24,601 nt of DNA from a virus. The stretch is taken from IMG/VR virus record IMGVR_UViG_3300013010_000065, positions 1 through 24,601 of that record. The stretch is one strand, 5' to 3'. The notes under the pieces are model-generated. The model did not search any database, had not been told where the DNA came from, and saw nothing but the letters and a program-made list of their open reading frames with translations. A program made the translations under genes and the position numbers. Shown here in pieces: positions 6,384-23,926 of this stretch (the first letter of the stretch is position 1; each line of letters opens with the position of its first letter).

Positions 6384-6989
6384 ATGGGAGAGAAATTTAA
6401 TCCAATGGATGTTGTGAGTGTTCCTATGGAAGAACTGAAGTTAGATGATCAGAATGCTCGGAAAGGTAACATTTCTGCAATAGTGGAAAGTCTTGAGGAA
6501 TTTGGTCAGCATCGACCTATAGTTGCTCAAAAAAAGAGTAAAAAAATTATTGCAGGGAACCATATGTATCGGGCGGCTCAGGCTTTAGGCTGGAGTCATG
6601 TAAACGTTTACTGGGTTGATGATAATGAGATCCAAGCAATGAGGCGTGGACTAGCGGATAACGCAACGGCTAATCTGGCGACATGGGATGAAACAGTGTT
6701 AGCGGAACTTTTATCTCAGACTGGAGTAGTTCCGGGTATTGATGAAAGCATGTTGGAATCTTTGACAATGGTGATGGAGAAAGAGGTTAAAGAATCTCCA
6801 ATTTTCCCAATAGTTGCCCGCATGAATGAGAAATATGACTATGTTGTTGTGATTGCTAAAAGCGAGATTGACACTGTTTGGTTGTATGAAAAATTTGGGT
6901 TAAGGGTTGAGCAGTCGTATAAAGGTCCGAAGACTGCGAGATCTCATGTAGTGACTGTTGAGAGATTGCAGGAATTATGGAAGAGTTAG
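6384..6989 (+). CDS. ParB-like protein with extra C-terminal domain
   Basis: 201 residues. Residues about 10-125 are a ParB/Srx domain with NARKGN, SIVESLEEFGQHRPIV-like text and a canonical AGNHMYRAAQALGW at 57-70. The C-terminal part (about 138-201) contains YDYVVVIAK and a SYKG segment found in phage ParB-like proteins next to DNA-modification genes. It overlaps by 13 bases a gene for a glycosyltransferase of the TET-associated type, which suggests the three genes (two ParB-like, one glycosyltransferase) act together, perhaps to choose or read modified bases. That link is inference. Ribosome binding site GGTAGGGGAAG at 6371-6381. Confidence 0.8.
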   Translation: MGEKFNPMDVVSVPMEELKLDDQNARKGNISAIVESLEEFGQHRPIVAQKKSKKIIAGNHMYRAAQALGWSHVNVYWVDDNEIQAMRRGLADNATANLATWDETVLAELLSQTGVVPGIDESMLESLTMVMEKEVKESPIFPIVARMNEKYDYVVVIAKSEIDTVWLYEKFGLRVEQSYKGPKTARSHVVTVERLQELWKS

Positions 6990-7720
6990 TCAAAATTATT
7001 TGTCCTTCATCTAAAAGGGCAGATAACGTTATGACGGCAAAAGTTGTTCACGAGTTGGCGATATGTGTTCCAGAATCCGAAGCGGCTGAATACAAAGCAC
7101 ATAATCCTAATTGCGAAATAATCACTCACCCGAATGATGTGATCGGGCTACCATTGAAACGGCAATGGATCTACGAAAAATTTGGCAACATTTTTATGCT
7201 TGATGATGACATTGCCTACATGAGGGATTGGACCTGCCCACCGGGGAAAAACTCTACGTTTGAACCTGATGTAGTTAGAGAAATGATTCAACGGCAGGCA
7301 TGGATGGCGAAAGAAATCGGGGCTTACCTTTTCGGGTTCAATCATCTAGTACGTCCAGTGTTTGTTCATCCTCAGCAACCTTTTGCGATTAAGGGATTTA
7401 TACCGGGGCATTCAATGGGTCTTCTGAAAGGCTCAAAACTTTATTGGCATAAACGTGCCACGACTGTATGTGACTATTGGATCTCTTCACTGAATGCTTA
7501 TCATCACCGTATTGTGTGGAAAGATTTACATTACGGGTTCCTGCAAACCAAAACGTTTAAGGGGGCTGGAGGTCAGGCACAACATCGTTCTATGGCTGTT
7601 GAGTTTGAAGCGAATGTTTTTCTTCGAGAGTATTTCGGTAGTGACGTTATTCGGAATAAGAAAGACACAATCACTAAAAGATCCCATGATGCTATGCGTC
7701 ATATGGCTTTACCGTACTGA
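6977..7720 (+). CDS. TET-associated-type glycosyltransferase (TAGT-like)
   Basis: 247 residues, GT-A-like layout. The N-terminus reads IICPSSKRADNVMTAKVV (8-25), a pattern I associate with phage glycosyltransferases linked to TET/JBP base modification; ICVPES follows and the nucleotide-sugar metal site is DDD at 76-78 (MLDDDIAYM). Downstream are a FNHLVRP segment, GHSMGLL and a conserved DYWISSLNAYHHR region that could form the acceptor site. The known relatives add sugars to hydroxymethylated bases in phage DNA. No TET dioxygenase, hydroxymethylase or thymidylate synthase homologue is present in this window, so the acceptor is unknown. Protein glycosylation remains possible. Confidence 0.65.
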   Translation: MEELVKIICPSSKRADNVMTAKVVHELAICVPESEAAEYKAHNPNCEIITHPNDVIGLPLKRQWIYEKFGNIFMLDDDIAYMRDWTCPPGKNSTFEPDVVREMIQRQAWMAKEIGAYLFGFNHLVRPVFVHPQQPFAIKGFIPGHSMGLLKGSKLYWHKRATTVCDYWISSLNAYHHRIVWKDLHYGFLQTKTFKGAGGQAQHRSMAVEFEANVFLREYFGSDVIRNKKDTITKRSHDAMRHMALPY

Positions 7721-14124: not shown

Positions 14125-14195
14125 TGGGGAAATTAAAAGATATGTATCTCATGAATGATTCCAGCGAGGAAGAGAGTGCTGATGTTGAGGTTTGA
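14124..14195 (+). CDS. Very short ORF, 23 residues
   Basis: ATG shares one base with the previous stop and the frame ends 14 bases into the next gene. The peptide is acidic at its end (SSEEESADVEV). It may serve only to couple translation to the HD hydrolase gene, whose ribosome binding site lies inside it. Confidence 0.35.
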   Translation: MGKLKDMYLMNDSSEEESADVEV

Positions 14196-14679
14196 TTTTG
14201 ACTTGCAGACTCCTAACGATGCTTTGGAATTTGCTTCCTATGCTCACCGATTTCAGACAGACAAACTAGGCGTTCCTTATATTCTCCATGTGGCTCGTGT
14301 TGGTTCTGCGTTATGGAGATTCGGTAATGAATTTGTGATGGCTGGATTTCTGCATGACGTTGTTGAAGATACTGATTACACTCTTGAGGATCTTTCCTAC
14401 ATGAATACTCCGTTAAGTGTGGTTCAGGCGGTGAAGGCTTGTACTAAGGAATCCTCTGAAAGCGATTTAACGGCATATGAGGCGACTATCCGTAAGGCTA
14501 TGGCGGATCCTATCGGCTTATTAGTTAAAGCCTCTGATGTGTCTGATAACGCTTCAAGGATCCGTGATCTTCCTGAGGGGGAATTACAGGATCGTATGGT
14601 TGATAAATATCTATTGGCTGAGAGGGTATTGCGGGAAAAGATCCCAGATTTCCATTTCAGCGGTTCTTTTCACTACTGA
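14182..14679 (+). CDS. HD hydrolase, small alarmone hydrolase-like
   Basis: 165 residues, the size of MESH1-type (p)ppGpp hydrolases. The SpoT/MESH1 signatures are in order: ALEFASYAHRFQ (14-25), PYILHVARVG (32-41, H36), AGFLHDVVEDTDYTLEDL (54-71; H58, D59, E62, D63) and LVKASDVSDNASRI (114-127; D119). These residues bind manganese and remove the 3' pyrophosphate of ppGpp in the known family. The phage could use it to suppress the stringent response or a nucleotide-based defence; another nucleotide substrate is possible. ATG 14182 follows GAGGAAGAGA; an upstream ATG at 14155 is less likely. Confidence 0.82.
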   Translation: MLRFDFDLQTPNDALEFASYAHRFQTDKLGVPYILHVARVGSALWRFGNEFVMAGFLHDVVEDTDYTLEDLSYMNTPLSVVQAVKACTKESSESDLTAYEATIRKAMADPIGLLVKASDVSDNASRIRDLPEGELQDRMVDKYLLAERVLREKIPDFHFSGSFHY

Positions 14680-14688
14680 AGGAGTTTC

Positions 14689-14847
14689 ATGAAAAAGAAG
14701 AAAAACGTACGCAGACCTAAGAGGGTCACTGCTACTGATCGTAGGATTATTGTTTTCAGGAATCTTTCTCTAGGGGCTTTAGCCGTGATGGTTGGCGGGG
14801 TTATTGGTTGGACTATCTCAGGAAGGTGTCAGAAATGTCTCAGGTAG
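14689..14847 (+). CDS. Small basic membrane protein
   Basis: 52 residues. A very basic N-terminus (MKKKKNVRRPKRV) precedes one membrane segment at about 26-43 (LSLGALAVMVGGVIGWTI) and ends in CQKC. AAGGAG at 14679-14684 is the ribosome binding site. The C-x2-C could bind metal or form a disulfide outside. Overlaps the WhiB gene by 13 bases. Function unknown. Confidence 0.65.
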   Translation: MKKKKNVRRPKRVTATDRRIIVFRNLSLGALAVMVGGVIGWTISGRCQKCLR

Positions 14848-15059
14848 AATGGATGCAAGACGCTTTATGTGCTCAGGTCGATAATGATCTGTTTTTCCCT
14901 CAAACAGGGCAAAACTCTTCAACGGCTTTAAGCATATGTAAAAAGTGTGACGTAAAAATTGAATGTCTCAACTATGCCCTTTCTTTCGAAATAATTACTG
15001 GAATTTGGGGCGGTACAACTGAACGGCAGCGAAGACAAATCAAGCGCCTAGCAGCGTGA
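14835..15059 (+). CDS. WhiB-like iron-sulfur regulator
   Basis: 74 residues. Four cysteines in WhiB order, C12, C35, C38 and C44 (CKKCDVKIEC), hold a 4Fe-4S cluster in the family, followed by the GIWGGT turn (56-61) and a basic tail TERQRRQIKR. WhiB proteins bind region 4 of the primary sigma factor and are confined to actinobacteria and their phages, which fixes the host phylum. GGAAGG at 14821-14826 supports ATG 14835. A second, divergent WhiB-like protein is encoded at 17047 with identical cysteine spacing. A role in switching phage or host promoters is likely. Confidence 0.9.
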   Translation: MSQVEWMQDALCAQVDNDLFFPQTGQNSSTALSICKKCDVKIECLNYALSFEIITGIWGGTTERQRRQIKRLAA

Positions 15060-17294: not shown

Positions 17295-17702
17295 ATGACT
17301 GCACTGGCAACAATCGTTGGGAACCTAACTAAGGATCCTGAACTTCGATTCACTAAATCAGGTGATTCAATCGCAACAATGACAATCGCCGTGAATGAGA
17401 GGGTCAAAGATGGTAATGAATGGAAAGACGGTGAGGCATCTTTCTACGATGTGAAAGCGTGGAAGAAACTGGGAGAACAAGTAGCAGAGAATCTCGTTAA
17501 AGGATCCCGAGTTGTTGTGGTTGGGAAACTTCGTATCGAAAAATATGAAACAAAAAACGGTGAAACCCGTTACACAACTGTTATCACCGCTGAAGAAATT
17601 GGGCAATCAATCCGATTCAGCAAAGGGGAACCAACTCCACGAATGACAGTACGGGAACCTGATCCTTGGGCTCAGACTGATAACGAAATTCCACCATTCT
17701 AA
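17295..17702 (+). CDS. ssb: Single-stranded DNA-binding protein
   Basis: 135 residues. An OB fold covers about 1-110 (ATIVGNLTKDPELRF, then FYDVKAWKKLGEQVAENLVKG and VVVVGKLRIEKYE). The C-terminus ends DNEIPPF, the acidic tip that recruits replication and repair partners. It binds single-stranded phage DNA and probably works with the Rad52-like and replication proteins encoded at 3155-4975. GAGGGAG at 17281-17287 is the ribosome binding site. Confidence 0.95.
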   Translation: MTALATIVGNLTKDPELRFTKSGDSIATMTIAVNERVKDGNEWKDGEASFYDVKAWKKLGEQVAENLVKGSRVVVVGKLRIEKYETKNGETRYTTVITAEEIGQSIRFSKGEPTPRMTVREPDPWAQTDNEIPPF

Positions 17703-17712
17703 CTAAGGGCGA

Positions 17713-17718
17713 TACACT
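17713..17718 (+). promoter_or_regulatory. Leaderless -10 candidate TACACT
   Basis: TACACT, the same hexamer as in P3, lies exactly six bases before ATG 17725. No Shine-Dalgarno is present. Confidence 0.5.
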
Positions 17719-17724
17719 TGACCA

Positions 17725-17853
17725 ATGACTCCGCTTCTAACCTTCGCCGTGACCGTTCACGAAATGTATCGTGCATTTGTTGAAGCAGGGTTCACGGATG
17801 CTCAAGCCATGTACTTGACCGCGCAGAGGATGAATGCAGATGCCAGAAGATAA
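17725..17853 (+). CDS. Small helical protein upstream of portal
   Basis: 42 residues: FAVTVHEMYRAFVEAGFTDA then QAMYLTAQRM. Short proteins with a GFTDAQAMYLT motif precede structural genes in many phages. It overlaps the portal gene by 20 bases and probably starts the structural transcript. Function unknown. Confidence 0.65.
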   Translation: MTPLLTFAVTVHEMYRAFVEAGFTDAQAMYLTAQRMNADARR

Positions 17854-19114
17854 AGAACATGTAGGGTTCCTTGAGATTGGTTCGTCTGGTCTCAAACGCT
17901 CAGGCGGGTACATCAATGAAGAATTCCTTCCGAACCTTCAGGGTGTTAAAGGGTTCAAGGTTTACCGTGAGATGCACGACAATGACCCTGTTATTGGGGC
18001 GATGTTGTATGCAATCGATAAGGTCATTACTCGACTGGAATGGCACGTTGAGGGTGAGGATGAAAGAACCACTCAATTCGTTGAAGAGTGTTTGAATGAC
18101 ATGTCTGACTCGTGGGATTCCACACTTCAAAACATTCTGTCAATGTTGGTCTATGGCTGGTCATTTCATGAGATTGTTTACAAAATCCGTAGGGGTTATA
18201 CAGGGGATCCTAAGACGCAATCGAAATATAACGATAACCGTATTGGTTGGCGTAAGTGGTCGGTTCGTGCTCAAGAAACTTTGCAAGAATGGATGATTGA
18301 CGATAGCGGCGGCATTCAAGGAATGATCCAAATGGATCCGTCTAGTGGTAAAGGTCTAGCAAGGATCCCTATCGATAAGGCTCTCCTATTCCGCACGACC
18401 ACTAACCGCAATAATCCCGAAGGATATTCCCTTCTCCGTAACGCCTACCGCCCGTGGTTTTACAAGCGTAGGATTGAAGAGATCGAAGCGGTTGGTATTG
18501 AGCGGGATCTTGCGGGACTCCCAATGGCATACGTTCCACCAGAATACTTGTCGAATACCGCAACCCCTCAGCAGAAGGCGGTTCTTCAGGCTATTACTGA
18601 GATCGTTCAGAATGTGAAGAGGAATGAGCAGGAAGGGATTGTGTTCCCCGCTTCATACGATGAGGCTGGTAACAGGATCTTTGACCTTACTTTGCTGTCG
18701 GCTTCAGGAGGTCGCCAGTTTGACACTGGAGGCGTCATCCAACGATACGACCAAAGAATTTCAATGAGTCTTCTGTCCGACTTCCTGCTACTCGGATCTG
18801 ACAGGGTAGGTTCTTTCGCTTTGGGTTCCGCGAAGGTGGATCTCTGGACTTTGGCTGTGGACTCTATAGCGAAATCAATCGCTGAGGTAGTGAACCAATT
18901 CGCTATCCCACGTTTATTGAAATTAAACGCTATGAGGCTCGATAAACTCCCGTACCTCACATATGGTCAAGTCAGCAGTATTGAACTCGTTGAGGTGGCT
19001 GATTTCGTTTCTAAACTGGCATCCGCTGGAGTTATCATGCCTGATCCCGTTCTTGAGGCGCATATGCGTTCCCTCGCTGACCTTCCGGAGCCTGAGACTG
19101 AATCGATGATGTGA
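17834..19114 (+). CDS. Portal protein
   Basis: 426 residues. The layout fits Mu gp29/DUF935-like and related portals: DPVIGAMLYAIDKVITRLEW (51-70), a WDSTLQNILSMLVYGWSFHE stretch (94-113), and NPEGYSLLRNAYRPWFYKRR with a following VGIERDLAGLPMAYVPPEY. Twelve copies form the DNA channel at one vertex and anchor the terminase. A MuF-domain gene follows with four-base overlap, as usual for this portal type. ATG 17834 or 17840 could be the start; GAGG at 17826-17829 suits either only moderately. Confidence 0.9.
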   Translation: MQMPEDKEHVGFLEIGSSGLKRSGGYINEEFLPNLQGVKGFKVYREMHDNDPVIGAMLYAIDKVITRLEWHVEGEDERTTQFVEECLNDMSDSWDSTLQNILSMLVYGWSFHEIVYKIRRGYTGDPKTQSKYNDNRIGWRKWSVRAQETLQEWMIDDSGGIQGMIQMDPSSGKGLARIPIDKALLFRTTTNRNNPEGYSLLRNAYRPWFYKRRIEEIEAVGIERDLAGLPMAYVPPEYLSNTATPQQKAVLQAITEIVQNVKRNEQEGIVFPASYDEAGNRIFDLTLLSASGGRQFDTGGVIQRYDQRISMSLLSDFLLLGSDRVGSFALGSAKVDLWTLAVDSIAKSIAEVVNQFAIPRLLKLNAMRLDKLPYLTYGQVSSIELVEVADFVSKLASAGVIMPDPVLEAHMRSLADLPEPETESMM

Positions 19115-20862
19115 TGCTTCGGTTCAAACAAAGAACTCCACCAACGTCACGGCAGGAACTCACCGCAAGTCAGAGAAGATTCCAACGGATCTACTTGAAT
19201 GCGGTCCGTCAGGTACAGGATCAAATCAAAAGGGATGAGGGTTTAATCCTTGACGCTATCCAACACCGTAGCCTTCAATACGTTGTGGATCTTGTTAATG
19301 ATGAACCGTGGTATCAGGCTCAAGAACTCATGCAGCAGGAACTTCTTTCTGAACTGATTGACGGGGGTAAGAGAACTAAACTTCCTAGCATTCAAAAGGC
19401 TGAGTTGCGGTTCAAATTTGATGCGGCTCGACCTGAGGCGGCTTCGTGGGCTTCTAAAGAGGCAGGGGCTCTTATTCGTGAGGTGACACAGGATCAGATC
19501 AACGTGGTTCGGGATCTCGCTTCTAGGGCTTCACAGGGCGAATTTACGGGGGTTCAGGTAGGGAGATCTCTGCGTGACCATATTGGTTTAACTCAACGTC
19601 AGGCTGGATGGGTAACTAATTTCAGGGAACGTACGTTTAATGAACAGATAGGGAGGGGCAGGTCTTTCGCGGATGCGATGGCTCGGACGGATTCTTTAAC
19701 TGACAGATACGCGCAGAGGATCCACCGTTACCGTTCTGAGATGATCGCTCGGACTGAGATTCTCCGCGCTTCTCATGAGGGCAGAAGGCAGGCATGGTCT
19801 CAAGGGGTCAAAGAGGGTTACATTTCTGTTGAGGATAAAAAGTATTGGTCTGCGAACGATGATGACAGGCTTTGTGAGGATTGTTCTTCACAGAGCGCAA
19901 CCTATGATCGTTCGGGGGCGATCTTTATTAATGAAGAGTTTGAGATGGGGGAACCACCGATTCATCCGATGTGTCGTTGCGACATTGTGTTGTTACCGAT
20001 GGGGAGGGATGCTGATCTTTCTGACATGAGCCAGCAGCAGTTGGATGAAATTATTGATACTGGTATCGCGCCGACTCAGCAGTTGGGTCAATCAACTCGA
20101 ATTGGGGATGATGAGTTTAAGGAACTTTCACAATTCAGTGGAAGGAATTACGTGACGGGGAGGACTCCTGAAGGTATCCCGATGTTTAATGCTGAACGGG
20201 CGGCTTTACATGACCGTATCGTGATGGACATTCTTTCTCCATATAAGGCTAGTCAGAATCCGACTTACACGATGCTAGGTGGTGGACCTGCTTCTGGTAA
20301 AACTACTGCTCTAGGAAGGATTGCTGGTTTCAGTGATGACACTGTTGCAAAGATTGATCCTGATGCGATCAAGGGGATGATCCCTGAATACCGTAGTTTG
20401 GTTTCATCAGGTGATAAAGGTGCGGCTGCGTTTGTTCATGAGGAATCTTCTTACATTGCGAAGAGGGTTCAGCAGGCTGCTTTTGAAAGGCGAATAAGTG
20501 TTGTACTAGATGGAACTGGTAACGGCTCTATTGATGGGCTCGTTGCTAAGATGAGTGCAGCGCAGGCTAATGGCTATCAGGTTCGGGCTTACTACGCAAC
20601 GATTAGCGTGGATGAGGCGATTATTCGTTCGACTGCTCGTGCTGCTAGATCTGGGCGTGAGGTTCCAATAGAAAAAATTACTGAGACTCACGCTAGTGTT
20701 TCGAGGGTTTTCCCTACGGCTGCTCGAATGGCTGATGATATTGAACTTTATGACACGACTACACGTACCCCCCGTTTGATAGCGCGAGGAAGGGGTGGTA
20801 CTATAGAAGTGCTGGATGAGGAGGCTTACAGAGCCTTCCTAGAGAAAGCAGGTGCATCATGA
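19111..20862 (+). CDS. MuF capsid protein fused to zeta toxin
   Basis: 583 residues. The N-terminal part is helical; residues about 150-295 are a Mu gpF-like domain with DDDRLCEDC (250-258) and IHPMCRCD (284-291). After a linker, residues about 380-565 are a zeta-toxin/PezT-like kinase: GGGPASGKTT Walker A at 390-399, KIDPDAIKGMIPEY (414-427), VVLDGTG (464-470) and arginines R506-R516 ending GREVP. Zeta kinases phosphorylate UDP-N-acetylglucosamine or related sugars and stop wall growth. All key residues are kept, so activity is plausible. MuF proteins can enter the cell with DNA, so this may be an injected effector. Confidence 0.88.
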   Translation: MMLRFKQRTPPTSRQELTASQRRFQRIYLNAVRQVQDQIKRDEGLILDAIQHRSLQYVVDLVNDEPWYQAQELMQQELLSELIDGGKRTKLPSIQKAELRFKFDAARPEAASWASKEAGALIREVTQDQINVVRDLASRASQGEFTGVQVGRSLRDHIGLTQRQAGWVTNFRERTFNEQIGRGRSFADAMARTDSLTDRYAQRIHRYRSEMIARTEILRASHEGRRQAWSQGVKEGYISVEDKKYWSANDDDRLCEDCSSQSATYDRSGAIFINEEFEMGEPPIHPMCRCDIVLLPMGRDADLSDMSQQQLDEIIDTGIAPTQQLGQSTRIGDDEFKELSQFSGRNYVTGRTPEGIPMFNAERAALHDRIVMDILSPYKASQNPTYTMLGGGPASGKTTALGRIAGFSDDTVAKIDPDAIKGMIPEYRSLVSSGDKGAAAFVHEESSYIAKRVQQAAFERRISVVLDGTGNGSIDGLVAKMSAAQANGYQVRAYYATISVDEAIIRSTARAARSGREVPIEKITETHASVSRVFPTAARMADDIELYDTTTRTPRLIARGRGGTIEVLDEEAYRAFLEKAGAS

Positions 20863-21080
20863 CCGGTGAAGAACTGGACTTCATGATCCAAGAAATCACG
20901 ATGGGAATTCCAAAAGAACAATCCACCGTGATCAGGAGCGTCAAGGCATTTGAAATGTGGGACATCCTAGAAAGTCAAATCGAAGAGATCAAAATGAGGG
21001 GCAACGAAATAGAAATTCCTTTCGAAACCCCTAGTGTTGATGTGGTAACTCAGGCACTACCTATTGAACCCGTAGAATAG
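20859..21080 (+). CDS. Small acidic protein, candidate antitoxin
   Basis: 73 residues, ATGA overlap with the MuF-zeta gene. Helical and acidic: EELDFMIQEITMGIPKEQ, then AFEMWDILESQIEEIK and a proline-containing tail. Epsilon antitoxins of zeta are also small, helical and acidic, but no sequence match is visible. Position directly after a zeta domain makes neutralisation during particle assembly a reasonable hypothesis. A plain assembly factor is the alternative. Confidence 0.5.
   Translation: MTGEELDFMIQEITMGIPKEQSTVIRSVKAFEMWDILESQIEEIKMRGNEIEIPFETPSVDVVTQALPIEPVE
21073..21078 (+). promoter_or_regulatory. Leaderless -10 candidate TAGAAT
   Basis: TAGAAT lies six bases before the ATG at 21085; AGGTG between them could be a weak ribosome binding site instead. 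Confidence 0.3.
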
Positions 21081-21084
21081 GTGC

Positions 21085-22632
21085 ATGGATCTTCTCGATA
21101 AAATAAATTCCCTCACAGACGATCAACTTCAAATGGTCGCTGAACGTGACGACGCTTCAGGGGTTTTAGCGGCATACCGTCTGGCAGAAATACGAGGACT
21201 ACCTTGTCCCGAAAGGTCAGCAGTTATCACAGGTGACGGCTACGTCATCATTGCCCAAAACGGTTTAATCCAAAGAGTAGAAACTGAAGGGGTAACAAAA
21301 ATAATCCGTCAGGAAGAAGGCGAATACTGCGTGTATTCCGAAGACGGTTCCCAATCTTTCGGATGCTACCCAACAATGGCTGATGCTGAAGAACGTTTAC
21401 GGCAAATCCACTATTTCGGGGATGAGACTGAGAAAGCGATACGTGAAGGATCTTTCGTTTCGTGGAATTCTAGCGGTGGCAGGGCTCGGGGCAGAATAGA
21501 GCACATCATGACTGAAGGCGTTCTTGGTGTTCCAGATAGCGACTTCTCTATAGCCGCTGAACCTGATGATCCCGCAGTATTGATCCGTATTTGGCGGGAA
21601 ACTTCTGAAGGATGGAAAGAAACCGAAACACTCGTAGGACACAAAATGTCCACACTCACTTCAATCGATCCGCTCACTAAAGAATCTTTCGTTCCCCCTG
21701 AAGGTGTGCAAGAGGCTGGCAAAAGGGCTTTAGGCTGGATTGCTGAGGATCACGCAGGATCAGGATTCACTGATGTTGGTAGGGCTAGGGCTGCACAGTT
21801 AGCACGAGGAGATGCAGTCTCTGAAGAAACCATCCGCCGAATGTCTTCCTACTTCTCCCGCCATGAGAATGATTCCAACGCTACAGGCTGGAACAATGGG
21901 GAAGAAGGATTCCCATCACCGGGTCGTGTCGCGTGGGATGCTTGGGGCGGTGACGCTGGTCGTACGTGGGCTGACATGATGGTTGAAAGATTCAATCGTG
22001 AGGAGAAATCTCGTCCTGTCGGTAAGGGAACAATCCTTCGCAAAGCAGATGAGAAACAATTCACTCTCGGACCTTTGTATGTTCCTGACTTTATGGATGC
22101 TCACGGGGAATGGACAGACTCTGAAGAATTACAAAACGCAGTGTGGGGATGGGTTCGTTCAGGAGATCGAAGAATTTTCCTCCAGCATGACACAGACGTT
22201 GTAGCGGGTGAATGGGTTGAAGTAATGACTATGCCTCAACCGTGGACGGTTCAAATGACTGACTCCAATGGTGTTGTTGTGGGAGAGGCAACGTACCCGA
22301 AAGACACGGTATTCCTCGGAGTTGTTTGGAATGATGAAGCGTGGGACATGGTGAAACGTGGCGAACTTAGAGGCTATTCGATTGGCGGCTATTCGGATCG
22401 GATGATGGCGGATCTTCCATTAGAAGCAGACCGAGATGGTGTAGAGATCCCTGTTCAAGAGGCAACAAAAGATATTAGTAAGACGATTGCTGACGCTATT
22501 GCTTTAGCAATGAGTAAGAATCAACCAGTCGTGAACGTGGTAATGTCTGATGAGAGAAAAACCCGCGTCCGAAGGATTGAACGTGACGAGCACGGTAATA
22601 TAGCCCGTATCATTGAAGAAGAAGAGGTTTAA
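21085..22632 (+). CDS. XkdF-like prohead protease with Tudor-like domain
   Basis: 515 residues, several domains. About 72-112: a small EGEYCVYSEDGS ... RLRQIHYFG unit. About 122-194: a Hva1-Tudor/DUF2945-like domain (SFVSWNSSGGRARGRI ... LVGHKMSTL). About 198-303: a tryptophan-rich domain with YFSRHE and GFPSPGRVAWDAWGGDAG. About 326-440: an XkdF-type putative serine protease region with FTLGPLYVPDFMDAHGEW, then VFLGVVWNDEAWD and RGYSIGGYSDR (H340 and S432 are candidate catalytic residues). The family processes capsid proteins after portal and MuF assembly. No major capsid gene follows within the window. Confidence 0.78.
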   Translation: MDLLDKINSLTDDQLQMVAERDDASGVLAAYRLAEIRGLPCPERSAVITGDGYVIIAQNGLIQRVETEGVTKIIRQEEGEYCVYSEDGSQSFGCYPTMADAEERLRQIHYFGDETEKAIREGSFVSWNSSGGRARGRIEHIMTEGVLGVPDSDFSIAAEPDDPAVLIRIWRETSEGWKETETLVGHKMSTLTSIDPLTKESFVPPEGVQEAGKRALGWIAEDHAGSGFTDVGRARAAQLARGDAVSEETIRRMSSYFSRHENDSNATGWNNGEEGFPSPGRVAWDAWGGDAGRTWADMMVERFNREEKSRPVGKGTILRKADEKQFTLGPLYVPDFMDAHGEWTDSEELQNAVWGWVRSGDRRIFLQHDTDVVAGEWVEVMTMPQPWTVQMTDSNGVVVGEATYPKDTVFLGVVWNDEAWDMVKRGELRGYSIGGYSDRMMADLPLEADRDGVEIPVQEATKDISKTIADAIALAMSKNQPVVNVVMSDERKTRVRRIERDEHGNIARIIEEEEV

Positions 22633-22634
22633 TC

Positions 22635-22991
22635 ATGGCAGGTTTAGTTGATGCAGGTAAAAACCTGCTGCTTGAAGGTTTAGCCACAGGGGTTTCATAT
22701 GTAAGCCTTCACACTGCTGACCCTAATGGGACTGGTAGCGGTGAGGTAAGTGCTTCACCATACGCACGTAAATCTGTTGATTGGGCGGCAGCGGCTTCGG
22801 CTTCTATCTCCAGCGCCTCGGCTATCGTTTTCGATGTACCGGGATCTACCACGATTGAATATCTCGGGTACTGGTCCGCTTCAACTTCTGGAACTTACTA
22901 TGGTTCACGGGCTTTAGATGTTTCACAAACATACGCAACACCGGGAACTTACACGATTGCTATTGGGAACATCACTGAAACAATAACGTAA
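22635..22991 (+). CDS. Small virion structural protein
   Basis: 118 residues. The pattern SYVSLHTADPNGTGSGEVS, YARKSVDWAAA, VFDVPGSTTIEYLGYWSAS and a final YTIAIGNITET is a beta-rich protein found in phage structural modules, often with several paralogues per genome. It may be a decoration, fibre or tail-associated protein. AGAGG at 22624-22628 serves as ribosome binding site. It shares one base with the next gene. Confidence 0.7.
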   Translation: MAGLVDAGKNLLLEGLATGVSYVSLHTADPNGTGSGEVSASPYARKSVDWAAAASASISSASAIVFDVPGSTTIEYLGYWSASTSGTYYGSRALDVSQTYATPGTYTIAIGNITETIT

Positions 22992-23926
22992 TGGCAGGAC
23001 TGTTTACTCTTGACAATGAAACGTTAGGAGTTCTTGACAGTAACCCATTAGGCGGATTCGGTACAGGTTTCGTTTCAGGTGAAAGTAGTACGTTTTCTTC
23101 TATTTCTGGGAATGTAGGGCATCCCGGATTTGTTGAAGGTTCTTCAAACTCTGAGGGAACAGTTTCGGGTGTTCTTAATTTCTCAGGATCTATCGAAGGT
23201 TCTTCAACTTCTTCTAATTCTGTTTCTGGCACTGCAGGGTTTAACGGTTTAACGTCAGGGTCTGTTTCTTCTTCAGGATCCGCTGCAGGATCTACAGGTT
23301 TCGATGGTGTTGTTACAGGGATTGTTTCTTCTTCTGGATTTGTTACAGGATTCGAAGGTGATTCGGGATTTGTTTTTGGTTCCAATAATTCTTCAGGAAC
23401 CGTTTCGGGTGTTGAGGGTGATGTTGGGTTTGTTTCAGGATCTAATGATTCTTCGGGAACAGTTGTAGGGTTAGAGGGCTCATTTGGTGTTGTTGTAGGT
23501 AATTCGACTACGGCTGGTTTCGTTGTCGGGGTTCCTTCAGAGGATAAAACTGGATCTGTTTTTGATGAATCTTCCAGTAGTGGGCTATCTGTTGGGTCTC
23601 CTTCACTTTCTGGATTTGTTTCTGCGAACAGTGTTTCTTTTGGAACTATTTCGGGAGTTGGACCAACTCCTCCGACTCCTCCCGCACCTGACATGTATCC
23701 CGTTCCAGCGGGGTATGTTTGGTCTTTTAGTGGGGATACTTCACAGGTTCAGGATCTTTTCGGATCTGTTGCTGGACAGGTTTCTTGTTCTGGAGGTTTA
23801 ACCGGTTCGGTTGGATTATTTGGATCGTGTGGGAATGATTCAATTTCTGTGGGATCTGCTTGGGGTCGTGGGAAAACTATTGAGCAGGATGACTTAGAGG
23901 TCATGGAACTTTTGGACTTGCTGTAA
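22991..23926 (+). CDS. Repeat-rich structural protein (fibre-like)
   Basis: 311 residues. After a short head (LFTLDNETLGVLDSN), residues about 22-225 contain some ten tandem repeats of 20 residues with the scheme G-x-V-x-G-x5-G-x-V-x-G-x4, rich in Gly, Ser and Val. The half-repeat of ten suggests a beta-solenoid. A proline linker (PTPPTPPAP) leads to a C-terminal domain with two cysteines (VSCSGG and GSCGN) and an acidic helix. Fibres and tip adhesins have this kind of architecture, so host recognition is plausible. Repeats make it prone to length variation. Confidence 0.72.
   Translation: MAGLFTLDNETLGVLDSNPLGGFGTGFVSGESSTFSSISGNVGHPGFVEGSSNSEGTVSGVLNFSGSIEGSSTSSNSVSGTAGFNGLTSGSVSSSGSAAGSTGFDGVVTGIVSSSGFVTGFEGDSGFVFGSNNSSGTVSGVEGDVGFVSGSNDSSGTVVGLEGSFGVVVGNSTTAGFVVGVPSEDKTGSVFDESSSSGLSVGSPSLSGFVSANSVSFGTISGVGPTPPTPPAPDMYPVPAGYVWSFSGDTSQVQDLFGSVAGQVSCSGGLTGSVGLFGSCGNDSISVGSAWGRGKTIEQDDLEVMELLDLL
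23056..23665 (+). repeat. 60-base degenerate coding repeats
   Basis: About ten tandem units of 60 bases (some 63) encode the 20-residue repeat. Recurrent words are TCTTCAGGA, GGTTCT and GTTTCGGGT or GTTTCAGG. The units have diverged in DNA more than in protein pattern. Confidence 0.7.

What the first reader, a model, noticed from the sequence alone, without database searches (positions are those of the whole stretch)
19111..21080. MuF capsid protein fused to an apparently intact zeta toxin, with a small acidic neighbour
The Walker A, Asp and Arg motifs of zeta kinases are all present downstream of a full MuF domain. MuF proteins sit in the capsid and some carry toxins in Firmicute phages, so this could be a toxin packaged in the virion and delivered with DNA, to block wall synthesis or exclude rival phages. 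A four-base-overlapping gene for a 73-residue acidic helical protein follows, which could hold the toxin inactive during assembly.
Basis: partly seen in the sequence, partly recalled or inferred. Interest (0 to 1): 0.75.

Follow-up and report, generated by a model that had tools for sequence, protein, structure and literature searches.

The report
Capsid-borne zeta kinase with conserved partner
A virus of probably actinobacteria makes a head protein whose tail end is an intact zeta-type kinase, followed by a small protein that accompanies such kinases in many unrelated viruses; it is probably an enzyme carried inside the virus particle together with its keeper, although what it phosphorylates is unknown.

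Summary
Window 19111-20862 encodes a MuF domain (PF04233) fused to a complete zeta-type kinase (PF06414, E 1e-26; predicted fold matches zeta at Z 19.4). A real, conserved 73-aa gene overlaps its stop codon by 4 nt. MuF-zeta fusions as such were already reported (Iyer 2017).

What is added here:
(1) The zeta domain recurs fused to MuF, portal, prohead protease and Tudor-like proteins.
(2) Homologues of the 73-aa protein follow zeta whatever the fusion partner: 26 of 46 zeta clusters against 0 of 72 MuF genes without zeta (Fisher 6e-14). It tracks zeta, not MuF.
(3) In cyanophage P-SS2 the MuF-zeta protein, and a homologue of the small protein, were detected in purified virions in 2009, without the zeta link being noted.
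(4) Catalytic residues are invariant in 50 of 50 zeta clusters, but UDP-GlcNAc-specific contacts are mostly replaced, and a haloarchaeal virus (murein-free host) carries one too. Cell-wall poisoning is therefore doubtful.
(5) The zeta half is better conserved than MuF, unlike a polymorphic toxin.

Best reading: a virion-packaged kinase effector with a dedicated small partner (inhibitor or chaperone). Toxicity, substrate and injection are untested. Novelty: new variant of a known kind.

The parts
17834..19114 (+). Mu-type portal protein gene directly upstream; its stop overlaps the MuF-zeta start
   Evidence: PF06074 E 3e-35; same order in L001 and L002
19111..20862 (+). MuF-zeta fusion gene, 583 aa
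   Evidence: Pfam PF04233 + PF06414; orthologues intact in L001 (100%) and L002 (83%)
19111..20079 (+). MuF half (aa 1-323), the likely capsid/portal anchor
   Evidence: PHROG 3517 head morphogenesis E 1.9e-35; Pfam MuF aa 196-292; matches Arthrobacter phage MuF proteins
20128..20859 (+). zeta-type kinase domain (aa 340-583); K397, D418, K421, H443-S446, D467, R510 and R516 are the catalytic/family residues
20859..21080 (+). small partner gene, 73 aa, 4-nt overlap with the zeta stop; motif W..L..EI.EIK..G..(V/I)EIPFETPSVD
   Evidence: conserved and zeta-linked
21085..22632 (+). prohead protease protein (Tudor-like + XkdF/S78_2). In other phages this protease is fused to the partner domain (L018, L077) or to zeta (L067)
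   Evidence: PF11160 and PF14550; fusions

Best explanation
The gene makes a minor head protein whose MuF half places it inside the capsid near the portal and whose C-terminal zeta-type kinase is an enzymatic cargo packaged in the virion. The kinase most likely acts on a small nucleotide-like metabolite of the host when the particle delivers its DNA, as an early host-modification effector comparable in logic to packaged T4 Alt. The 73-aa protein made just after it is a dedicated partner of the zeta domain, probably an inhibitor/chaperone that keeps the kinase quiet during assembly and may travel with it in the head. Shown: fusion, kinase fold (predicted), invariant catalytic residues, purifying selection, partner-zeta linkage, and virion presence of a homologous MuF-zeta protein and partner in P-SS2. 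Inferred: packaging in this phage, delivery into the cell, enzymatic activity, inhibition by the partner, and a substrate other than UDP-GlcNAc.
For: Domains and fold. Catalytic residues in 50/50 zeta clusters. Orthologues intact and under purifying selection. Zeta fused to MuF, portal, S78_2 protease or Tudor-like head-module proteins, next to portal genes. Partner follows zeta in 26/46 clusters against 0/72 zeta-less MuF genes (P 6e-14), and 0 of 80 zeta-less MuF loci (27 of them with the same protease family) hold it. Leave-one-clade-out recovery of partners. Searches seeded with partner proteins alone led back to zeta records (L175, L176, L187, L188, L190). P-SS2 ORF030 (MuF+zeta) averaged 96.5 peptides and ORF033 (partner homologue, 22567-22767) averaged 2.5 in purified virions: PMC2784084. 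MuF (SPP1 gp7) is drawn into the procapsid by the portal: PMC6316719.
Against: No activity, toxicity or binding data exist. The P-SS2 peptide counts do not say whether the zeta part itself is present or cleaved off. 20 of 46 zeta clusters lack a recognisable partner within 700 nt on the same strand (a few have it further away, some have unmatched short ORFs). In L018 and L077 the partner domain is fused to the protease, which would also fit an assembly role. The partner's fold is predicted at modest confidence and resembles no known antitoxin in the search run (best Z 3.1).
Confidence: 0.55

Rival explanations
1. MuF polymorphic toxin with immunity protein: the phage or lysogen uses a virion-delivered toxin to block competitors, and the 73-aa protein protects the producer.
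For: MuF N-terminus, C-terminal enzyme and small downstream ORF fit the layout that Jamet et al. describe (PMC5576092). An orphan partner gene without zeta sits in an Acidimicrobiales MAG (L191), as an acquired immunity gene would.
Against: Polymorphic toxins keep the N-terminus and swap the C-terminus; here the zeta half is more conserved (70% against 43% to L009; 63% against 47% to L012) and no close MuF relative with another C-terminus was found. No integrase or repressor was recognised among the window proteins scanned, though the record is a fragment.
Confidence: 0.15
2. Cell-wall effector: the packaged zeta phosphorylates UDP-GlcNAc, weakening wall synthesis to help DNA entry (Iyer et al. 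2017) or to kill.
For: Closest solved relative is the UDP-GlcNAc kinase zeta. Iyer et al. proposed this for MuF-zeta fusions (PMC5512222). T118 is kept in 44/50 clusters.
Against: E100, R120 and T128 of zeta are replaced by K (34/50), D/N (40/50) and K (42/50). Haloarchaeal virus HVTV-1 carries the same domain although its host has no murein (host fact from general knowledge).
Confidence: 0.15
3. Assembly or packaging enzyme: the kinase/ATPase acts inside the prohead (on head proteins or DNA ends), and the small protein is an assembly factor sitting between head genes and protease.
For: Always in the head gene module; partner fused to the S78_2 protease in L018 and L077; partner in P-SS2 virions; fold also resembles polynucleotide kinases (Z about 14).
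Against: Many MuF/portal/protease modules do without it: 80 MuF loci here lack zeta. It moves between portal, MuF and protease fusions, as cargo does. Closest folds are zeta/AvrRxo1 by a clear margin (19 against 14).
Confidence: 0.12
4. Plasmid-style addiction module: zeta and its small partner stabilise a prophage or plasmid-prophage, as assumed for marine viral zeta genes.
For: Zeta is a known postsegregational killer; marine virome papers read viral zeta genes this way (PMC8940887, PMC5332604).
Against: Fused to a late structural protein and overlapping the head operon, so it would be made during lytic growth, not in the lysogen (inference from gene order). Both papers note no integrase or other evidence of lysogeny in those viruses.
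Confidence: 0.03

Closest known systems
MuF-zeta fusions reported by Iyer et al. 2017 (polyvalent proteins, PMC5512222)
   Different: That paper assumed wall-precursor phosphorylation. The passages seen do not mention the partner family, the portal and protease fusions, or virion evidence.
Cyanophage P-SS2 ORF030 'minor head protein'
   Same: MuF (154-270) plus zeta (427-597); zeta 36.7% identical to the window; partner homologue downstream; found in virions
   Different: 1500 aa with a long C-terminal extension; MuF part not matched at sequence level; infects Prochlorococcus
Zeta / PezT UDP-GlcNAc kinases (1gvn, 3q8x, 2p5t)
   Same: Fold (Z 19.4 and 18.6), Walker A, base D67, K70, T118, R158, R171
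   Different: E100, R120 and T128 not kept; E116 is D; extra invariant HEES motif; fused to a head protein; antitoxin not detectably epsilon/PezA-like
AvrRxo1 (zeta-family kinase acting on NAD) with chaperone/antitoxin Arc1
   Same: Fold Z 18.8; ATP-site residues kept while UDP-GlcNAc residues are not; small downstream partner
   Different: Type III secreted, not virion-borne; its substrate-side residues do not match either; partner unrelated in the tests run
MuF polymorphic toxins (Jamet et al. 2017, PMC5576092)
   Same: MuF N-terminus, C-terminal enzyme, small ORF just downstream
   Different: C-terminus here is the conserved half; partner tracks zeta even when no MuF is fused to it; no sign of lysogeny in the fragment

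Membership tests
Zeta_toxin family (PF06414 fold and catalysis) | Pfam score over cut-off and zeta fold | tested here: met
   93.6 bits against cut-off 22.3; Z 19.4 to 1gvn
Zeta_toxin family (PF06414 fold and catalysis) | Walker A lysine, catalytic Asp (D67), Arg158 and Arg171 equivalents | tested here: met
   K397, D418, R510 in 50/50 clusters and R516 in 49/50. K and D follow from the direct alignment; the two Arg are assigned by offset and by the spacing in PMC6362051
UDP-GlcNAc kinase of the epsilon/zeta system | UDP-GlcNAc contacts E100, T118, R120, T121, T128 | tested here: not met
   Only T118 (T469) clearly kept. K at E100 (34/50), D/N at R120 (40/50), K at T128 (42/50); T121 position ambiguous
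UDP-GlcNAc kinase of the epsilon/zeta system | Epsilon/PezA-type antitoxin | tested here: inconclusive
   Partner has no significant Pfam or NCBIfam match and no PDB match with Z of 5 or more; a weak search does not exclude it
MuF polymorphic toxin | MuF domain N-terminal to an enzymatic/toxin domain | tested here: met
MuF polymorphic toxin | Small ORF directly downstream | tested here: met
   20859-21080, conserved in five lineages
MuF polymorphic toxin | Conserved N-terminus with exchanged C-terminal toxin modules | tested here: not met
   Zeta half more conserved than MuF in all five relatives compared; no close MuF relative with another C-terminus in IMG/VR (L087, 78% identical, is cut off by its contig end)
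MuF polymorphic toxin | Carried by a temperate phage | tested here: inconclusive
   No integrase or repressor found by Pfam among the larger window ORFs, but the record is a 24.6-kb fragment
Virion-packaged effector (T4 Alt type) | Protein present in the virion | tested here: inconclusive
   Shown for the P-SS2 homologue (96.5 peptides, PMC2784084); not shown for this phage
Virion-packaged effector (T4 Alt type) | Injected and enzymatically active on the host | not testable with these tools
   Needs infection biochemistry

The most novel reading that the evidence does not exclude
The small protein founds a new class of zeta partner (antitoxin/chaperone) specific to head-borne zeta kinases. Because it lies between zeta and the prohead protease, and in some phages is fused to that protease, the kinase is held inert until head maturation or ejection separates the two: a toxin-antitoxin pair rebuilt into the capsid maturation pathway, with a substrate other than UDP-GlcNAc.
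Probability: 0.22. Interest if true: 0.82.

Novelty: new variant of a known kind. Interest (0 to 1): 0.58.

Why it matters
Viral 'zeta toxin' genes in marine viromes have been read as plasmid-type addiction systems. These data suggest that many viral zeta domains are enzymes built into virus particles. The partner family gives a concrete handle: it can be co-expressed, co-purified and mutated, and P-SS2 offers a cultured phage in which kinase-bearing protein and partner are already known to be in the virion. If confirmed, it would add a small-molecule kinase with its own keeper protein to the short list of virion-delivered host-modifying enzymes, and ask what metabolite such enzymes target in hosts as different as actinobacteria, cyanobacteria and haloarchaea.

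Tried and rejected
Phage-collection tblastn with the 73-aa protein found nothing; IMG/VR profiles were needed. Megablast of the whole window against isolate phages found nothing. A 16-sequence partner alignment was too diverse for a collection scan, so a five-member subfamily was used. An early idea that the partner is just a spacer gene between MuF and protease was tested and rejected: 27 zeta-less MuF loci with the same protease family lack it. The opposite worry, that partner genes occur without zeta (L181-L184, L187-L191), mostly dissolved: L187, L188 and L190 have tandem zeta further upstream in the same record; L181-L184 and L189 come from short records in which the region where zeta would lie is wholly or partly missing; only L191 (bacterial MAG) lacks zeta. 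Fold search of the partner gave nothing above Z 3.1, which proves nothing. PADLOC gave no hit. Chromosomal Zeta_toxin hits in the class of the L191 genome are more distant and do not align over the HEES motif. The minus-strand partner-like ORFs (L027, L040, L045, L046, L049, L053, L055-L058, L063) are too weak to count and were left out of the statistic.

Full report
WHAT IS THERE. The window is a 24.6-kb fragment classed as a virus in IMG/VR, with a terminase-like ORF, portal, MuF-zeta, small ORF, XkdF-type protease and head genes in order. The reported ORF (19111-20862) matches Pfam MuF (aa 196-292) and Zeta_toxin (aa 376-544, E 1.4e-26). AlphaFold2, from 20 homologues, gives the zeta half good confidence behind a low-confidence linker. 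Structure comparison puts zeta 1gvn (Z 19.4), AvrRxo1 (18.8) and PezT (18.6) clearly ahead of polynucleotide kinases (about 14). The same gene order occurs in L001 (100% identical MuF-zeta protein) and L002 (83%).

KINASE COMPETENCE AND SUBSTRATE. In 50 zeta clusters (90% identity) from the fetched loci, the equivalents of K46, D67, K70 and R158 and a HEES motif are invariant, and R171 is kept in 49. The K46-T118 equivalences come from the alignment; the Arg equivalents are assigned by offset and published spacing. The residues that contact UDP-GlcNAc in zeta include E100, T118, R120 and T128, with T121 close by (PMC3062530; the five are listed in PMC4938570). Here E100 is mostly K, R120 mostly D or N, and T128 mostly K; only T118 is clearly kept (44/50). 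AvrRxo1 shows the same pattern of kept ATP residues and lost UDP-GlcNAc residues, and acts on NAD. A relative sits in gp115 of the virulent haloarchaeal virus HVTV-1, next to a MuF-like gp114 that scores slightly below Pfam's cut-off. Haloarchaea lack murein (general knowledge). UDP-GlcNAc phosphorylation is therefore possible but not the default reading. The true substrate is unknown.

THE ZETA DOMAIN IS A RECURRENT HEAD-MODULE CARGO. A profile scan of IMG/VR gave 80 loci. In these the zeta domain was practically always part of a larger protein: fused to MuF (window family, L026, L030, L048, L071 and others), to portal proteins (L020, L063, L065), to the S78_2 protease (L067), or to other proteins directly after the portal (L003, L004). 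Several carry two zeta domains in tandem. A short, apparently solo copy (281 aa) exists in Bacteroides phage SJC03, so fusion is the rule and not a law.

THE SMALL PARTNER. The 73-aa ORF has homologues of 73-85 aa at the same place in all five relatives of the MuF-zeta gene. A profile built from these found homologues next to zeta genes with entirely different fusion partners: other MuF (L026, L030, L071, L021, L076), portal (L065), and as the N-terminal domain of the protease just after zeta (L018, L077). Leaving out each clade in turn, the remaining profile still recovers it, with E between 1e-20 and 1e-4 for nearly all; L077 (0.017), L066 (0.02) and L034 (0.14) are weaker. Counting one per 90% zeta cluster, 26 of 46 have the partner on the same strand within 700 nt, against 0 of 72 MuF genes without zeta (Fisher 6e-14). 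None of 80 zeta-less MuF loci has it, 27 of which have the same protease family. Caveats: the profile was extended iteratively on this same set of loci (controls included), and clusters are not fully independent. As an independent check, scans seeded with partner proteins alone found L175 and L176, both with tandem zeta, and further loci whose zeta genes lay up to about 6 kb away in the same record (L187, L188, L190). The partner is therefore linked to zeta, not to MuF, portal or protease as such. Its acidity is not conserved, and no known antitoxin fold was recognised.

VIRION EVIDENCE ALREADY IN PRINT. Cyanophage P-SS2 encodes MuF (154-270) and zeta (427-597) in one 1500-aa protein at 17648-22147, which is ORF030. 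Sullivan et al. 2009 (PMC2784084, Table 2) list ORF030 with an average of 96.5 peptides in purified virions, and ORF033 (22567-22767) with 2.5. ORF033 is the partner homologue found here (coordinates checked; leave-one-out E 1.1e-4). A MuF-zeta protein of this kind, and its partner, are thus virion components in one cultured phage. The paper's text does not use the word zeta, and the table does not say which part of ORF030 the peptides cover. SPP1 gp7, the model MuF protein, is brought into the procapsid by the portal and helps infection start (PMC6316719).

WHY NOT A CLASSIC POLYMORPHIC TOXIN. Jamet et al. describe MuF toxins of temperate phages with small downstream ORFs. The layout matches. 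But the zeta half is the better conserved half against every relative (L009 70% against 43%, L012 63% against 47%, L016 51% against 46%), and no close MuF relative with another C-terminus was found. No lysogeny gene was recognised in the fragment.

VERDICT. The basic architecture was reported in 2017. What is new here is the partner family and its association with zeta, the virion evidence connected to it, and the residue evidence against the default substrate. Marine studies that read viral zeta genes as addiction systems, while noting no integrase or other sign of lysogeny, may be worth revisiting; that is an inference, as those genes were not examined here. Toxicity, delivery, inhibition and substrate are all untested.

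Noticed in passing
L191 5992-6440: Acidimicrobiales MAG contig carries an orphan partner gene plus the 81-aa phage gene that follows it in viruses, between chromosomal genes (next to a leucyl-tRNA-synthetase-like ORF) and with no matching zeta in the genome. It could be a prophage scar or an acquired immunity gene.
   Followed up: partly
L231 2641-6426 (HVTV-1 gp115): Zeta domain plus a weak C-terminal ADP-ribosyltransferase match in one protein next to a MuF-like head protein, in a virulent haloarchaeal virus.
   Followed up: partly
L073 775-3696: Portal protein with a C-terminal Alt-like ADP-ribosyltransferase region, directly before a zeta-fusion gene: two putative host-modifying domains side by side in one head module.
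   Followed up: no
L029 2979-5696: Zeta-fusion protein whose head-protein part is interrupted by a weak intein-splicing match (aa 248-507); the next protein (1188 aa) starts with a partner-like domain and carries a 2H phosphoesterase (2'-5' RNA ligase family) match.
   Followed up: no
L027, L040, L045, L046, L049, L053, L055-L058, L063 (minus-strand ORFs of 61-81 aa after zeta): Weak partner-like hits on the opposite strand downstream of zeta, repeated across related contigs; could be a rearranged partner or profile drift.
   Followed up: no
window 14808-15059: WhiB-family regulator (E 1e-20), pointing to an actinobacterial host.
   Followed up: partly
window 6977-7720: TET-associated glycosyltransferase match, suggesting hypermodified DNA bases in this virus.
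   Followed up: no
window 14155-14679: HD-domain protein (HD_4), possibly a nucleotide hydrolase, among accessory genes between terminase and portal.
   Followed up: no
window 22972-23694 (-) over 22991-23926 (+): A 240-aa Pro/Glu/Thr-rich minus-strand ORF is a shadow of a repetitive Gly/Ser-rich head-region protein; probably not a gene.
   Followed up: no
window 21085-22632: PHROG names 'RNA ligase' and 'DNA methyltransferase' match only the protease stretch of this protein, so those names look like misannotations of fused family members.
   Followed up: partly
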